38,815 nt of DNA from contig JALWDU010000056.1 of NCBI GenBank assembly GCA_027036735.1, forward strand, positions 1-38,815, given 5' to 3'. Numbering within the stretch: the first letter of the stretch is position 1; every line of letters starts with the position of its first letter. The stretch comes from Aquificales bacterium (GTDB taxonomy: Bacteria > Aquificota > Aquificia > Aquificales > QOAS01). Both the position numbers and the translations under genes were made by a program. This document shows positions 8,421 to 38,815 of this stretch, in pieces. The notes beneath the pieces are model-generated. The model searched no databases. It saw nothing but the letters and a program-made list of their open reading frames with translations, and was not told where the DNA came from.

Positions 8421-8452
8421 GGTTTTCAATTCCACTAAGTGGAGATAAAACC
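8421..8452. repeat. CRISPR-repeat-like palindromic unit (solo)
   Basis: GGTTTTCAATTCCACTAAGTGGAGATAAAACC: GGTTTT/AAAACC outer pairs and TCCAC-taa-GTGGA inner stem. Confidence 0.55.
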
Positions 8453-18384: not shown

Positions 18385-20565
18385 TCAAACCAAACTCCTC
18401 GGGTTGGGTATAACTCTAACAAACCTGTATCGGTTTCTAAGGTCTTTCAAAACCCCGGCGGTCTTCCTCAAGGTATCCCTATCCACCTTTAGGGGGAGTT
18501 TTACCAAAACCTGGTAGCGGTATTTTTCCCTAAGCCTAAAGGTGGGGGCTTTGGAATATTCGACCTCCACACCGAGGGGTTTTAAAGCCGTTTTCAATTC
18601 CCTGTAAAGTTTCAAAGCTATTTCTTCGTTCTCCTCTTTTAGGTTTATAGCGACGAGGTAGAGCCTCGCAAAGGGAGGGAGTTCCAAAATTTTCCTAAAC
18701 TCCACCTCTTGGAGGTAAAAAATTTTTTCGTCTCCCTCCAAAAGGGCTTTTACGGCGTGGTGTTCCACCTCTTGGGTGTGGAGGACGAACAAACCACCCT
18801 TCTTGGTTCGGTTTTTCGCCTTTACCAGAAAGCGGAAAAACTCCTCTCCCTTCCTAAAGTCGGGAATCGATAGAATCGAGTCCGCAAAGAGGACATAGAC
18901 GCTATCGAACTCACCATCCAAAGGTGGGTGGGTTGAAAATGTAAACTCCCCTCGGGGGAGATGGGATTTTACAATCTCCTCCATCCGTTCTATACCGTAG
19001 CCGAAGGGTTTGGTCTCCCCGCCGCATCGGGGACATTCGCGGCTCTCGGCTTTGTAACCGCAGACGGGGCATTCCACCCTCCCGTCGGAAAAGAGGGTTA
19101 AAAATACCTCGCAACGGGGACACTCGACCAACTTCCCGCAACGGGGACAAAAGAGGTTCGAATAACCCCTCTTGGGAACGAGGATTAAATGTTTCCCCTC
19201 CCTACGCAGGTACTCGAAAATTATCCCTCCCTCAAAGGGGTCCTTTTCTTCAAATAGCACCTTTTGGGGTTCCCCCTTTTCCTCCTCCACCTCAAAGGTT
19301 TTGGAGATAAGAAACTGCTCCACGCTCGGCGGTTCGGAGGAGACTATCAGCTTTGCCCCCAAAAGGTGGGCGTATTCAAAGGCGAGGCGCTTTAGGTTGA
19401 AATAGGGGCGCCTTGGCATCTTGTAAGCCGGATGACCCTCGTCCTCTATATAGACCGCCTTTAGGTTTTTTAAAGGAACAAATAACCACTGGGGGGTGGT
19501 GATAAAGACCTTTCCAAACCCCTGCGCGGCGAGGAACCAGTTTTTAATCCTCTCCTTTTGGGGTAGGGTTTCGGCATAGACCACCGCTCGGTCTCCGAAA
19601 ATCTCGTAAAACCTGCGGTGGAATTTCTCAATTAGCTCCAATTCGGGTAGGAGGATTAAAAAGTCCCCCCCTTGGGAGATTACCCACTCCGCCACCGATA
19701 GGAGCTTTTCCATTCTCTCCCTTAGGGGTAGGTTTCTAAGCTCCCACCTATCGGGGGGCTCGAAAGGTGTATAAACCGCGCGGGGCTCTTTTAAAACGCT
19801 CTCCCTAAAGGGTTCGAGCGTGTAGCTCACCCTTTGGAGGAGACCCCTATCGAGCATATAGCGAATCGTTTGGGAGCTTATACCGAACTCCTTTAGCTCC
19901 TCCCTCTCGAGGGGTCGCCCCAGCTCCTCGAAGAGCGATATTACCCTCAAAACCTCATCCCGCCGCTTCGCGGCGGCTCTCTTTATTTTTCTCAAAATCT
20001 CTTCCCTGTCGGTCGTGGCGGGTTTGAGGAACTCCTCCTCCACCTTCGGCGCCACCCAGCGGGTTTCTATCTTCAAAAGGTGGTGTTCCTCCAATAAGCG
20101 GATAACCCTGTGGTCGAACTCCTTCTTTAGTTTTTCGTATTCGATTTTTCCCCTCTTTCGGAGCTTTTCGAAAATCCGAACCACCGCCTTGGGGAGACCT
20201 ATAGGTTTCTTGTCCACCGCGAGGACGTAGGTCTCCTGATACCAATCCGCCCAAGTGGGGATTAGTTTAAAAACGCTCTCACCCAAAGTGGTGAGATACT
20301 CGACGAGGTTATTCCTCAAAACCTCCAAGGCGGGAGGGTTTATGACCGGATACCTGTCGGGGAAGGAGTCTATTAGAGGAGTTCCCTCCGAGGGTTTGGC
20401 GAGAAACTTTTTAACCACAACGGCGGTCGCACCCTTTCCGCTCCTCTTAAGGGGAACGAGAACCCTATACCCCATGGGGTCGAAATCTATCTCCTCCTCC
20501 AATAGGTATATTTCACTCCTGCCGTTCGGAAATACCACCTTTAGGTGGGGTAAAAGGGGGGACAT
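18385..20565 (-). CDS. priA: PriA (primosomal protein N')-like protein lacking recognisable helicase ATPase motifs
   Basis: Retained zinc-binding region FCPRCGKLVECPRCEVFLTLFSDGRVECPVCGYKAESRECPRCGG and relics of the PriA core (VYIEDEGHPAYKM, ADSILSIPDFRKGEEFFRFL). Confidence 0.85.
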   Translation of the reverse strand: MSPLLPHLKVVFPNGRSEIYLLEEEIDFDPMGYRVLVPLKRSGKGATAVVVKKFLAKPSEGTPLIDSFPDRYPVINPPALEVLRNNLVEYLTTLGESVFKLIPTWADWYQETYVLAVDKKPIGLPKAVVRIFEKLRKRGKIEYEKLKKEFDHRVIRLLEEHHLLKIETRWVAPKVEEEFLKPATTDREEILRKIKRAAAKRRDEVLRVISLFEELGRPLEREELKEFGISSQTIRYMLDRGLLQRVSYTLEPFRESVLKEPRAVYTPFEPPDRWELRNLPLRERMEKLLSVAEWVISQGGDFLILLPELELIEKFHRRFYEIFGDRAVVYAETLPQKERIKNWFLAAQGFGKVFITTPQWLFVPLKNLKAVYIEDEGHPAYKMPRRPYFNLKRLAFEYAHLLGAKLIVSSEPPSVEQFLISKTFEVEEEKGEPQKVLFEEKDPFEGGIIFEYLRREGKHLILVPKRGYSNLFCPRCGKLVECPRCEVFLTLFSDGRVECPVCGYKAESRECPRCGGETKPFGYGIERMEEIVKSHLPRGEFTFSTHPPLDGEFDSVYVLFADSILSIPDFRKGEEFFRFLVKAKNRTKKGGLFVLHTQEVEHHAVKALLEGDEKIFYLQEVEFRKILELPPFARLYLVAINLKEENEEIALKLYRELKTALKPLGVEVEYSKAPTFRLREKYRYQVLVKLPLKVDRDTLRKTAGVLKDLRNRYRFVRVIPNPRSLV

Positions 20566-20668
20566 TAGAAGTTTAATGTTGGTTTTCTATTCCCCCTAAG
20601 GGTGGGATTTGTTTACCATCTTTTGGGAAGTTGGAGACCTACCGAAGGAGAAAAGAATAGTTGATGGG

Positions 20669-21826
20669 TTATTGATTTGATTTTTCCAAAAATTGTTTGT
20701 TTGCGACATCCAATTCGTAAATTATGTTATTGGTTTTATCCTCAATATAGGCTTCTTTAGCTCCGAGAATATCCACCAGTAATTTGGCTAGGTATCTTAA
20801 TTGTAATTCTTTATTAGTTCCTCCCCGATATACATACCACGTTTCACCATTAATTTTTACTTCTCCGGGTCTAGTGCCTGCCTCTTCCGATTTTTTTGCT
20901 ATAACGTAATAGTTTGCTATTTTAGGTATACTTTTTAAATTGATAATGTTGTGCTTAACTAAGTGAACAACTAATGCATCTATCAATTTAGTAAATTGAG
21001 AAGCTTGAATGTTAATAAAATCTCCATTCTCCAATTTTATGCGCATAAAAATATGTTTTTTTCCATATATTTTCTTCTTTCTAATAGAATTTAATTTGTT
21101 ATTACTTTTCCCAAGACTTTGAGTGCCCTTATCAAAAGGTTTTTGTGATTTTTGCGACTTTATAAGTTTAAGGGTTGCTACTTTTGTTTCGACATCACTT
21201 CTTTCGGCTGAAGCTAATTTATTCCAAATCCTTCTAATTTCCTCTTTCTTTTCTTCTGGAGTAGTTGCAACTTCATCAATCATATAAAAGCAACTTTGTA
21301 AACATTTATCGAATGTACTAACAGCTTTCTTAGGTTGCAAACAGCAGAGTAAACAAAAAAATTTGAAAATTTCCTCTTGATTATCTAAGTTAAAAGTAAT
21401 TTTTATAAATTTATCTATTTTTTGTTCTAAAAATAGAAACCAATTAACACCATCGGTCAAACCATAAAAGGTCTTTCCAACTACTTGAGACATGTATTTC
21501 CCTAATTGTTTTTTAGCCTTTACCAACTCCGATTGGGAGTCCAATTTATTAAGAGCTTTTACCTCCCATACGAAAATGGGTCTATTACTCCCTTCTTTTA
21601 ACACTACATCGATTTTATCCCCTTCGGGAGTTTGATACTCAAGTTCTACATTAAGAGGGTCGCTAAAGTCCCAACCTATAAGCTCTAACAGTTTGACAAA
21701 AAAACTAACCCTTATAGCCTCTTCATTACTTTCGTATATTCGTCTTCTCTGAGGTTCATTAATATATTGGTGGAATTTCTTTAAAAATCCTTCAATCATA
21801 TCCCAATTTCTTTCAGAAATTTGCAT
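20669..21826 (-). CDS. Orphan HsdR_N-like (type I restriction R-subunit N-terminal nuclease-like) protein
   Basis: FFVKLLELIGWDFSDPLNVELEYQTPEGDKIDVVLKEGSNRPIFVWEVKALNK resembles an HSDR_N nuclease core; visibly AT-richer than neighbours. Confidence 0.7.
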   Translation of the reverse strand: MQISERNWDMIEGFLKKFHQYINEPQRRRIYESNEEAIRVSFFVKLLELIGWDFSDPLNVELEYQTPEGDKIDVVLKEGSNRPIFVWEVKALNKLDSQSELVKAKKQLGKYMSQVVGKTFYGLTDGVNWFLFLEQKIDKFIKITFNLDNQEEIFKFFCLLCCLQPKKAVSTFDKCLQSCFYMIDEVATTPEEKKEEIRRIWNKLASAERSDVETKVATLKLIKSQKSQKPFDKGTQSLGKSNNKLNSIRKKKIYGKKHIFMRIKLENGDFINIQASQFTKLIDALVVHLVKHNIINLKSIPKIANYYVIAKKSEEAGTRPGEVKINGETWYVYRGGTNKELQLRYLAKLLVDILGAKEAYIEDKTNNIIYELDVANKQFLEKSNQ

Positions 21827-21839
21827 AGTAATTATGCAA
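21821..21839. promoter_or_regulatory. Inverted repeat over start codon of the HsdR_N-like gene
   Basis: TTGCATA-gtaat-TATGCAA, perfect 7-bp arms overlapping the ATG at 21826. Confidence 0.4.
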
Positions 21840-22089
21840 TTTTACACAAGCAAATAAAAGCATTCTTTTAAAAGCAAATATGCTTGCGTAGACCCCACTT
21901 TAACCTAATAGTGGAACATAAGGGAAGATTTACCATCTAGAGTTGCAATCAACCAACAGAGGTTAAACCTTTCACCCGAAAAAATAGCAAAGGTTTTAAA
22001 GGTTTCCCCGAAAAGGTTAAAAAGTGGCTCAAAGGGGAGGGACTTTTAAAGGAAAAAAATTCCTAAGTAAACGCTAAATTTAACACCTA

Positions 22090-22467
22090 ATGAAGGTCGC
22101 AATTCCTATAAACAGACCTCGGGAGGAGGGAGATTTAAGGGTATCCTCCCACTTCGGGAAGGCTTACGCCTTCGCCATAGCCGACACCGAGAGCGGGAAG
22201 GTTGAGGTTGTGGAAAACCCCCGCATGGCGCTCGGACTCCAACACGGCGCCGGTAGGTATATAGCCGAAATGTTCGCCCAAAAGGGCGTGAAAGCCGTTC
22301 TCCTGAGGGAGATAGGTCAGGGGGCTTTTAGACATTTAACCGCTTTGGGTATAAAAATCTACCTCGTTCCCAAAGAGGTTAAGACGGTTGAGGAAGCCCT
22401 AAAACTCTTCAAGGAGGGAAAGTTAAACCTACTTTTGGAGCCTAACGAACCACCCCACGAACATTAA
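22090..22467 (+). CDS. NifB/NifX (dinitrogenase Fe-Mo cofactor biosynthesis) domain protein
   Basis: MKVAIPINRP...VSSHFGKAYAFAIADTESGKVEVVEN... typical Nitro_FeMo-Co domain. Confidence 0.85.
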   Translation: MKVAIPINRPREEGDLRVSSHFGKAYAFAIADTESGKVEVVENPRMALGLQHGAGRYIAEMFAQKGVKAVLLREIGQGAFRHLTALGIKIYLVPKEVKTVEEALKLFKEGKLNLLLEPNEPPHEH

Positions 22468-34508: not shown

Positions 34509-36584
34509 ATGGCTAAAAAGTATAGGGAAGAGCTTTACAGCGAGAGAAACGCCTGTCCCGAACACGGGATAAGCCTTCCCGAACTGTCGCCGAGACTTTT
34601 TTCCTTTAACTCCCCTTACGGGGCTTGTCCCGACTGCAAAGGTTTGGGGGTAAAGTGGGAGATAGACCCCGATAGTCTGGTCGAGGAGGACAAACCGGTA
34701 GAGGAGGCAATAAAACCACTCCAATCGATGTTATTCAACTATCTGAAGTTCCCCCTTAGGAGGTTGGTAAGGCTCTTAGGATACTCCACGAGGACAAAGT
34801 GGAGAGACCTACCGGAGGAGGTAAGAAATTTAATCCTCTACGGGAGTAGGAAATTCGATTCACCCGTCGAGTGGGAGGGGGTAATTCCCCACCTCGAGAG
34901 GAGATATATAGAGAGCGACAACGAGAGGGTGAGGGAGGAACTCGAAGACTACATAAGGGAAAAAACCTGTCCCACCTGCGGCGGTTCGAGGCTTAGACCC
35001 GAGGCGCTGAGCGTCCTAATAGACGGAAAGAGCATCTGGGATATCGTCCAAATGCCGGTAGGGGAGGCTAAAAAATTTTTCGAAAACCTCCGCGAAAAAT
35101 TGACCGAAAGGGAAAAACAGATAGCAGATAGACTTTTGGAGGAAATAATCAACCGCCTCGGCTTTCTGGTGGACGTCGGTTTGGAATACCTAACCCTATC
35201 GAGGACGGCGACCACTTTGAGCGGCGGCGAGGCGCAGAGGATTAGGCTCGCCACCCAATTGGGTAGCAAACTAACCGGAGTCCTCTACGTGTTGGATGAA
35301 CCCTCCATAGGACTCCACCCGAGGGACACGACAAAACTCATAAACACCCTTAGGGGTTTGAGGGATTTGGGAAACACCGTTGTGGTTGTGGAACACGACC
35401 CCGAGACCATCGAGAGCGCCGACTATATTGTGGAGCTGGGACCCGGCGCCGGTTATAGGGGTGGCGAGGTGGTCGCAACGGGAACGGTCGAGGAGATAAA
35501 GAAAAACCCCAAATCGTTAACGGGGGCGTATTTGAGCGGTCGCCTAAAAATCGAAGTTCCCAAAAAGAGGAGACCCCCTTCGGGGAAATTCCTGAGGATA
35601 GTGGGCGCGAGGGAGCACAACCTAAAGAATATCGACGTCGAAATACCCTTAGGGTGCTTTGTGGCGGTTACCGGCGTCAGCGGTAGCGGAAAATCGACCT
35701 TAATCTACGACATCCTTTGGAAAGCCGCAAAGAAGCGCTTTTACAAATCGGCGGAAGAGCCGGGCGAGCACGACCGCATAGAGGGGTGGGAACACATCGA
35801 CAAGGTGATAAATGTCGACCAATCGCCGATAGGCAGAACGCCCCGCTCCAATCCGGCAACCTACACCAAAATATTCGACACGATTAGGCAGCTCTTTGCC
35901 TCCACCCCCGCGGCTAAGGCACGCGGATGGAAGCCGGGAAGGTTTTCCTTCAATGTCAAAGGTGGTAGATGCGAAGCCTGTCAAGGGGAAGGAGTTGTAA
36001 AAGTTGAAATGCATTTTTTACCGCCGGTATATGTAACCTGCGAGGTCTGTAAGGGCACCCGCTACAACGCCGAAACCCTCGAGGTTAAATACAAAGGCAA
36101 AAACATCGCCGAAGTGCTCGATATGACTATAGAGGAAGCCTACGAATTTTTCAAAAACGTTCCCACCCTCGAGAGGAAATTAAAACTGCTCCTCGATGTG
36201 GGATTGGGTTATCTGAAGTTGGGGCAGCCCGCCCCCACCCTAAGCGGAGGTGAGGCACAGAGAATAAAACTCGCCCGCGAGCTGTCCAAAAAGGACACCG
36301 GCAGAACCCTCTATCTTCTCGACGAACCGACGACCGGTCTCCATACCGACGACGTGAAGAAATTAATAAACGTCCTCCAGAGGTTGGTCGATAAGGGAAA
36401 CACTGTAGTTGTTATAGAACACAACCTCGACGTGATTAAGAGTGCCGACTGGATTATAGACCTGGGTCCCGAGGGGGGAGACAGAGGGGGACAAATTGTC
36501 GCCGCTGGCACTCCCGAAGAAGTCGCAAACAACCCCAAAAGCTGGACGGGGAGATACCTAAAGCGGGTTTTGGAAATCGATTAA
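34509..36584 (+). CDS. uvrA: UvrA excinuclease ABC subunit A, N-terminally truncated
   Basis: [40 protein letters not shown], two [10 protein letters not shown] signatures, one C-terminal Walker A ([16 protein letters not shown]), zinc motif [29 protein letters not shown]. The first ~245 residues normally preceding this point are missing. Confidence 0.93.
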
Positions 36585-36691: not shown

Positions 36692-38815
36692 TTATCCCTT
36701 AAGGGTTCCCAAAGGTTTCAACCTCAAAATGGGTTTGGCTATACCCACACCGGCGACCGCCTTTATAACCTCCGCAACGTCCTTATACGCCTCGGGGATT
36801 TCCTCCATTATCGTCCCCTTACCGCGGGCTACAACCTTTAACCCCTTCTGTTTCACGTATTTGTCAACCCCTCCGAGGGATTTGACGTATTTTTTAGCCT
36901 TTGCGCGGGACATCACCCTTCCCGCCCCGTGGCAGGAGGTTCCAAAGCTCTTTTCCATAGATGCCGGTTGTCCCACCAATAGGTAGGAGTACCTACCCAT
37001 ATCGCCGGGAATTATCACCGGTTGTCCGTAGGGGCGGTAGGCAGGCGGCACCTCCGGGTGGTTGGGCGGAAAGGCGCGGGTTGCACCCTTTCGGTGAACC
37101 AGAACGGTTTTCTCCTCACCACCCACCTTGTGGGCTTCCAGTTTTCCGATATTGTGGGCGTGGTCGTAAACGACTCGGTAACCTATGCCCTCTATGTCGG
37201 TTCCCAAAACCTTGGCTATCGAAGAGGCGCTTATCCAGCCCAATATCTGACGGTTGGCAAAGGCGTAATTTGCCGCCGCATTCATAGCCCCCCAATACCT
37301 CTGCCCTTCGGGGGAGTTTAGGGGCATGCAAGCCAACTCGGGGTCGGGTAGGTTTATCCGATACTTTTGGGAAGCCCGAAGGGCGACCTTTATGTAGTCG
37401 GTGGCAACTTGATGTCCCAATCCCCTCGAACCGCTGTGAACCATTATTGCAACCTGACCCCTGAAAAAGCCGAGCGCCTTTGCGATTTCCGGCTCGTAAA
37501 TCTCCTCCACCTCTTGGACTTCAACAAAGTGGTTTCCGCTTCCCACCGTTCCCAGTTCGTCGCTACCCCTCTCGTAAGCTTCGTTTAAAACCGCATCGGG
37601 GTCGGCGAAGGGCAGCTGTCCGAAACTCTCTATGTGTTCCAAATCCTCCTTTTTACCATACCCGCGGGAGATAGCCCATTTTGCACCCAATCGGAGGACT
37701 TCCTTCATTTTGGACTTTGAGAGTTTTATCTTCGAAGTGGAGCCCACACCCGCGGGAACATTTAATAAAAGAGCCCTCATTACAGAATCGAGATGTTTCT
37801 TTACGTCCTTACTTTGGAGGTTTGTCGCTATTAGTCTGACCCCGCAGTTGGAGACGACAAAATTACCCGCAACGAAATTGTGTTCCTCCTCCCTCACCGT
37901 AAAGTCGTAAACCCAACCGTCGTAGGGAACTTCTTCGATTTCCTCAATAGTGTCCCAAACGATATCACCCTCGCAGTGGGAATTTATAAACTCCTCAAAG
38001 GTAGGGAAGTTCTTGGGAAGTCTAACACCTTTAGGGGACTCATATATACTCCTCTCCACAAAACGGCGGTTTATTCCAAGCTTTTCGGAAATACTTTCCA
38101 CATCCCACCCGGCGGCTTTCGGCAGAACCGCCTCCTCCCGAAGGGCTTCTCTCTTTTCCAATACAACACCCTTTAAACGCAGATAAGCCGCTCCGTAGAG
38201 GGCAAGCCTTTGCCTTTTGGGTGCGTACTCGTAGCCTATCGTCTCGAAAAACCTCAATAGATTTTCCCTTTCGGTGGATATATGCAGTCTAAACCTCAAA
38301 GAGTTTCTATCCCTCCTAACCTCCACCTTTTGGGTCTCAATTCCGAACTCACCCAAAAGGGTTTTTATATCTTCGACAAACTCCTCACCGCTTTTGGCAA
38401 AATTTTCCCTTTTATTCACGCTAAAGGTGAGGTTTAAGAAATTCTTGCCGTTTTTACCCACCTGGGGTTTATTCATTTCCGCCCCAAAGAGGGATGCGAG
38501 ATAGAGCCTCTTTAACCACTTCGGCAGTTTGAAGACCCATTCGGGAACCCTATAGGGGGTTTCCACCTTTTTACCCCTGGGAACACCGAGGGCGGCGAGC
38601 AGGTCGGCGAAAGATTTGGACGCCACATAGAGGAAGTTCTCCTCCGTCCGGTAGGTTTTTCCGTCAACCTTTACGGTTTTCTTCCTCTTGTAGATACCGC
38701 AGGGGGTAAAACCGAGTTTTTCGATATCCTCCGCAAGGAGCTTCAGCCCCTCTTCACTCCCGTAGAAGGAAACCTTTTCCTTACCCAAATGTCCGTCGCC
38801 GGTGAGATAACCGAT
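36692..38815 (-). CDS. rtcB: RNA ligase RtcB with LAGLIDADG intein (5' end beyond right edge of window)
   Basis: C-extein CGVRLIATNL...HFVEVQEVEEIYEPEI...MVHSGSRGLGHQV...SFGTSCHGAGRVMSR...LKPLGTLKG (36692-37846). Intein 37847 to beyond the edge: IGYLTGDGHL, YLASLFGAEMN, and terminal DGWVYDFTVREEEHNFVAGNFVVSN|C. Confidence 0.95.
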   Translation of the reverse strand: MGYLTGDGHLGKEKVSFYGSEEGLKLLAEDIEKLGFTPCGIYKRKKTVKVDGKTYRTEENFLYVASKSFADLLAALGVPRGKKVETPYRVPEWVFKLPKWLKRLYLASLFGAEMNKPQVGKNGKNFLNLTFSVNKRENFAKSGEEFVEDIKTLLGEFGIETQKVEVRRDRNSLRFRLHISTERENLLRFFETIGYEYAPKRQRLALYGAAYLRLKGVVLEKREALREEAVLPKAAGWDVESISEKLGINRRFVERSIYESPKGVRLPKNFPTFEEFINSHCEGDIVWDTIEEIEEVPYDGWVYDFTVREEEHNFVAGNFVVSNCGVRLIATNLQSKDVKKHLDSVMRALLLNVPAGVGSTSKIKLSKSKMKEVLRLGAKWAISRGYGKKEDLEHIESFGQLPFADPDAVLNEAYERGSDELGTVGSGNHFVEVQEVEEIYEPEIAKALGFFRGQVAIMVHSGSRGLGHQVATDYIKVALRASQKYRINLPDPELACMPLNSPEGQRYWGAMNAAANYAFANRQILGWISASSIAKVLGTDIEGIGYRVVYDHAHNIGKLEAHKVGGEEKTVLVHRKGATRAFPPNHPEVPPAYRPYGQPVIIPGDMGRYSYLLVGQPASMEKSFGTSCHGAGRVMSRAKAKKYVKSLGGVDKYVKQKGLKVVARGKGTIMEEIPEAYKDVAEVIKAVAGVGIAKPILRLKPLGTLKG

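What the first reader, a model, noticed from the sequence alone, without database searches (positions are those of the whole stretch)
20581..21965. Low-GC orphan nuclease-like gene bracketed by related repeat segments
Left: GGTTTTCTATTCCCCCTAAGGGTGGGATTTGTTTACCATCT... (from 20581). Right: CCCCACTTTAACCTAATAGTGGAACATAAGGGAAGATTTACCATCTAGAGTTGC (from ~21894). They share an exact TTTACCATCT (20612-20621 and 21929-21938). By eye both resemble the trmD-recG element (GGTTTTCAATTCCACTAAGTGGAGATAAAACC...ACCATTTTCAGTTGCC). The HsdR_N-like gene between them is clearly AT-richer than its neighbours. This suggests a cassette inserted at, or moved by recombination between, a dispersed repeat family.
Basis: partly seen in the sequence, partly recalled or inferred. 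Interest (0 to 1): 0.62.

Follow-up and report, generated by a model that had tools for sequence, protein, structure and literature searches.

The report
Accessory nuclease gene at inversion breakpoint
A foreign-looking, AT-rich gene for a probable DNA-cutting enzyme sits next to the broken half of another nuclease gene that a roughly 94,000-base chromosomal inversion cut in two; the suspected flanking repeats are not repeats of each other, and each part is of a known kind.

Summary
The AT-rich gene is real. ORF 20669-21826(-) encodes 385 aa at 31% GC, against 49 ± 3.4% for 34 window genes. It is absent from all six congeners and is a divergent HSDR_N-type PD-(D/E)XK protein. The "related repeats" are not repeats of each other. 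The shared TTTACCATCT is a chance match. The right segment (21903-22056) is the 3' half of a dead Rpn-family nuclease gene, which has four intact paralogs and one decayed paralog in this genome. Its missing 5' half lies on the same contig at C56:115693-115763. The halves tile one gene (nt 1-147 | 149-790, each with an internal deletion), with one base lost at the break.

Sister genomes keep the two undisturbed neighbourhoods, suox→priA and PEBP→nifX. One ~93.8-kb inversion, with one end inside rpn and the other at the suox stop codon, gives the window's arrangement. The priA-suox gap is itself variable: 18 bp in one congener, a different AT-rich HEC-02-like ATPase pair in the nearest sister, and the HSDR_N-like gene here. 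The trmD-recG "element" carries an orphan CRISPR repeat. Verdict: accessory gene and variable site confirmed; movement between dispersed repeats not supported. A clean but ordinary genome-evolution case.

The parts
18385..20565 (-). priA (726 aa), left core neighbour; in sisters G002 and G006 its upstream neighbour on the same strand is a molybdopterin oxidoreductase gene (suox)
   Evidence: Pfam PriA domains, just under cut-offs; synteny
20669..21826 (-). AT-rich accessory gene, 385 aa: N-terminal HSDR_N-like PD-(D/E)XK nuclease domain (about residues 20-140; D73, E88-V-K90, Q107), C-terminal region of unknown kind
21827..21902 (.). right AT-rich spacer (30% GC) ending at the inversion junction J1
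21903..22056 (+). 3' half of a decayed Rpn-family gene: paralog nt 149-201 joined to about 709-790, with a frameshift; contains the right TTTACCATCT (codons IYHLE). Its 5' half is outside the window at C56:115693-115763(-)
22090..22467 (+). NifX-type gene (Nitro_FeMo-Co domain), right core neighbour; directly downstream of PEBP in sisters G001 and G002

Best explanation
The interval is two things side by side. (1) 20583-21902 is an accessory insert in the gap upstream of priA. It carries one gene for a solo HSDR_N-type PD-(D/E)XK nuclease. Inferred function: a DNA endonuclease of the host-defence kind. (2) 21903-22056 is the 3' half of a dead Rpn-family nuclease gene. An inversion of about 93.8 kb cut that gene in two: one end fell inside rpn (order PEBP-rpn-nifX), the other at the stop codon of suox (order suox-[gap]-priA). 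The result is priA-[nuclease]-rpn3'-nifX here and PEBP-rpn5'-suox at 115.7 kb. Shown: composition, absence in congeners, a variable site, the two complementary rpn halves, ancestral adjacencies and strands in sisters. Inferred: that one inversion did it, joined through 2-3 nt of microhomology; that the insert reached the gap before the inversion; and that the protein cuts DNA.
For: Rpn identity: the right segment matches five other genomic places as a pair of ends (E down to 4e-30 and 2e-16). ORFs of about 260 aa there match Rpn family TIGR01784 at E=2e-5. Two halves of one gene: the 5' relic is rpn nt 1-50 + 129-147 and the window relic is nt 149-201 + 709-790, so only base 148 is lost. nhmmer gives 4.7e-11 for the 5' relic and 1.6e-20 and 7.7e-10 for the window pieces. 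Ancestral neighbours: PEBP and nifX adjacent on one strand in G001 and G002; suox next to priA on one strand in G002 and G006. Re-inverting 21.9-115.7 kb restores both adjacencies with the right strands. Insert: absent from six congeners and nearly all of 136 phylum genomes; GC outlier. In G006 the same gap holds a HEC-02-like ATPase (PADLOC E=1.4e-26) plus a small gene, 29-30% GC. In G002 it is 18 bp.
Against: Genome drafts in many contigs: junctions are not checked with reads, though neither junction shares sequence with the other, which argues against a repeat-induced misjoin. PEBP, nifX and the neighbouring radical-SAM orthologue were not found in the nearest sister G006, so the pre-inversion order there is taken from G001/G002. 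The G006 spacer between its cassette and suox resembles the window's relic region weakly (0 of 2000 shuffles in one test, but not found by nhmmer), which could mean an older rpn relic on the priA side. The nuclease's Pfam score is below the gathering cut-off (16.4 vs 25.1) and its C-terminal region matches nothing.
Confidence: 0.83

Rival explanations
1. One reading: a cassette inserted at, or moved by recombination between, members of one dispersed repeat family that bracket the gene.
For: The right segment does have dispersed relatives; the left and trmD-recG segments share a short similar stretch.
Against: Left has no other genomic copy; left and right share only a chance 10-mer; right is Rpn coding sequence; trmD-recG is a CRISPR repeat.
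Confidence: 0.03
2. Homologous recombination between two inverted rpn copies, one at PEBP-nifX and one at priA-suox, made the inversion; both hybrid copies then decayed.
For: rpn is multi-copy and dispersed; the G006 cassette-suox spacer weakly resembles the window relic.
Against: The two relics do not overlap and abut to within one base, which independent decay would give only about 1% of the time (estimate). The suox junction falls exactly at its stop codon with no rpn 3' sequence left.
Confidence: 0.1
3. Assembly misjoin in a draft genome rather than a real inversion.
For: 110 contigs; rpn is a repeated gene.
Against: Both junctions lie inside one 120-kb contig, join non-repeated partners, share no sequence, and their rpn pieces are complementary halves carrying further decay.
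Confidence: 0.05
4. The insert is a mobile element of its own (insertion sequence, integron-like cassette or prophage fragment).
For: Sharp composition boundaries and presence in one genome only.
Against: No terminal repeats or target duplication seen at its ends, no recombinase or transposase recognised among the ORFs beside it, no phage record and only a distant plasmid match.
Confidence: 0.08

Closest known systems
HSDR_N (PF04313) / HSDR_N_2 (PF13588) solo nucleases, e.g. Thermomicrobium roseum WP_012642919 and the ORFs in L081, L083, L084
   Same: N-terminal PD-(D/E)XK domain with invariant D73, E88 and K90 in a one-gene, non-type-I setting
   Different: 20-26% identity overall; below the Pfam cut-off; C-terminal region not demonstrably related
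Rpn family (TIGR01784 / COG5464)
   Same: the right-flank relic is about 85-90% identical to Rpn-family paralogs in this genome; these are dispersed, with homology running from the start codon to about the stop codon and no shared flanks, as described for rpn genes (PMC10327210)
   Different: dead, split by an inversion and internally deleted; the paralog itself scores below the TIGR01784 cut-off
Variable defence-gene sites between core genes (core defence hotspots; compare PMC10250203)
   Same: different AT-rich cassettes, one clearly defence-like, in the same gap between conserved genes in sister genomes
   Different: only two occupied and one empty example seen; no known integration mechanism
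HEC-02 candidate defence system (PADLOC), in sister G006
   Same: 341-aa ATPase matches HEC-02A at E=1.4e-26, with a small second gene behind it
   Different: second gene matches HEC-02B only at 0.003; not present in the window

Membership tests
HSDR_N solo nuclease | profile match above the curated cut-off | tested here: not met
   PF04313 16.4 bits vs 25.1; relatives L083 and L084 pass
HSDR_N solo nuclease | catalytic D ... E-x-K in the N-terminal domain | tested here: met
   D73, E88, K90 invariant with relatives
HSDR_N solo nuclease | restriction-endonuclease-like fold | tested here: inconclusive
   models at pLDDT 41-42; order of secondary structure compatible, confidence too low for a fold search
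HSDR_N solo nuclease | DNA cleavage | not testable with these tools
   needs biochemistry
Rpn family (right-flank relic) | homology to Rpn-family genes | tested here: met
   the paralog matches TIGR01784 at 2.2e-5 but under its cut-off (24.5 vs 52.1 bits)
Rpn family (right-flank relic) | intact reading frame | tested here: not met
   one internal deletion in each half and a 1-nt frameshift
Insertion sequence / MITE | terminal inverted repeats and target-site duplication | tested here: not met
   rpn homology runs from start codon to about the stop codon with no shared flanks; none seen by eye at the ends of the insert
CRISPR repeat (trmD-recG element) | same repeat in regularly spaced arrays in relatives | tested here: met
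   arrays with about 65-68 bp period in G001, G003, G004 and G005
CRISPR repeat (trmD-recG element) | an array at this site | tested here: not met
   a single copy at 8423-8451
Chromosomal inversion | both ancestral adjacencies present in relatives and restored, with strands, by one inversion | tested here: met

The most novel reading that the evidence does not exclude
The gap upstream of priA in this lineage is a real exchange site for small defence cassettes, and Rpn-family nucleases (or breaks made by them in their own genes) help to cause the rearrangements seen at such sites.
Probability: 0.08. Interest if true: 0.55.

Novelty: new member of a known kind. Interest (0 to 1): 0.3.

Why it matters
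It gives a nucleotide-level example of an inversion breakpoint that splits a nuclease gene in a small-genome Aquificota lineage, next to a site where sister species carry different AT-rich, defence-like genes. It also warns that apparent dispersed repeats can be halves of broken paralogous genes.

Tried and rejected
Dispersed repeat or MITE family: rejected. TTTACCATCT as a repeat or target duplication: rejected. tRNA or known RNA at the locus: none. Mobile phage or plasmid origin of the nuclease gene: no phage record and only a distant N-terminal match in one plasmid record. Close relatives in public genomes and viral contigs with the single sequence: none; with a three-sequence alignment: four distant loci, one of them the N-terminus of a 915-aa protein that looks like a fused restriction-modification enzyme (reading by eye). 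C-terminal region against relatives: no score above shuffles. Structure: two models, both too poor for a fold search. G006 cassette-suox spacer as an orthologous rpn relic: inconclusive.

Full report
Observation. The gene 20669-21826(-) is the composition outlier of the window: 31.3% GC and 26% GC3 against 49.0 ± 3.4% and 60 ± 5.9% for 34 other genes. The low-GC stretch stands out in the sliding profile over about 20.5-22 kb. Pfam gives only a sub-threshold HSDR_N match (E=0.0083); a PHROG endonuclease family matches residues 20-132 at 1.5e-5.

The flanks. Left and right share nothing beyond the 10-mer, a score that 96 of 500 shuffles reach. A genome-wide search with the left flank finds only itself. 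The right flank finds five other places, always as two pieces: window about 21903-21957 and 21964-22056. In those places the pieces are the two ends of an open reading frame of about 260 codons. Its product matches the Rpn family (TIGR01784, E=2.2e-5, under the curated cut-off). Four copies are intact and one is decayed in this genome, with more in G001, G005 and G006. So TTTACCATCT on the right is coding sequence of a dead gene (Ile-Tyr-His-Leu). The window copy lacks nt 1-148 and about 202-708 and has a one-base frameshift.

The missing half. The first 17 codons of the same gene, then nt 129-147, occur at C56:115693-115763(-), on the window's own 120-kb contig but outside the window. They abut the stop codon of a molybdopterin-oxidoreductase gene (suox) and follow a PEBP-family gene (named from its sequence and context, not from a family search). 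Against the intact paralog in contig C106 the two relics cover nt 1-50 + 129-147 and nt 149-201 + 709-790: one gene, cut in two, with one base lost.

Neighbourhoods in sisters. In G002 suox precedes priA on the same strand with an 18-bp gap, and in G006 with a two-gene insert between them. PEBP precedes nifX on the same strand in G001 and G002. In the window's genome the partners are exchanged: priA ... rpn3'-nifX and PEBP-rpn5'-suox. Turning round the segment between 21,902 and about 115,692 restores suox→priA and PEBP→rpn→nifX with all strands correct. One inversion of about 93.8 kb is therefore the simplest account. Junction sequences (TTTAACC|TAATAG and GAAGCC|TCACCC, ancestral rpn GAAGCCGACCTAATAG) suggest joining through two or three matching bases (inference).

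The insert. Sequence shared with G006 upstream of priA ends at about 20583. From there to 21902 the window has the HSDR_N-like gene, while G006 has a 341-aa ATPase similar to HEC-02A (E=1.4e-26) and a 139-aa gene, also 29-30% GC. The nuclease gene is absent from six congeners, and among 136 phylum genomes only one distant relative was found. Distant relatives elsewhere share the N-terminal domain; D73, E88 and K90 are invariant in the two alignments made. Its C-terminal region has no detectable relative. I infer an accessory endonuclease, probably defensive; nothing here tests activity.

The trmD-recG sequence. GTTTCAATTCCACTAAGTGGAGATAAAAC forms regular arrays in G001, G003, G004 and G005 and survives as three solitary copies in the window's genome, one at 8423-8451 with one mismatch. 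It is a CRISPR repeat leftover, not a relative of the right flank.

Place in the tree. The genome very probably belongs to Aquificota: the distant relative found in another family of the same order (G054) has the same protein as a public contig titled uncultured Aquificaceae.

Known or new. Rpn genes are known to be dispersed, horizontally moving and without inverted repeats, and to act in phage defence (PMC10327210). Defence genes in shared sites between core genes are known too (PMC10250203, title and abstract). The case is a new example of known kinds.

Noticed in passing
window 36692-38788(-): RtcB gene seems to carry an intein: Intein_splicing (just under its cut-off) and LAGLIDADG_3 matches precede the main RtcB domain.
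   Followed up: partly
window 34509-36584(+): uvrA-like ORF of 691 aa appears to lack the usual N-terminal ATPase part; the sequence just upstream is occupied by a gene on the other strand. Possibly another split gene or rearrangement.
   Followed up: no
L031 920-1141 (G000:C46:22419-22640): ORF made of repeated VAVMPAKCGIAT units looks like a CRISPR array of a second repeat type, near an intact Rpn-family gene.
   Followed up: no
L055 3270-3320 (G006:C152): Another Rpn-family 5' relic that also stops being homologous after about codon 17, like the one at C56:115.7 kb.
   Followed up: partly
L037 (G000:C13:4450-4800): Eroded CRISPR-like array with diverged repeats at roughly 55-65 bp spacing.
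   Followed up: no
L017 5754-5906 (G006:C89): Spacer between the sister's cassette and suox resembles the window's relic region more than shuffles do but is not found by the rpn profile; unexplained.
   Followed up: partly
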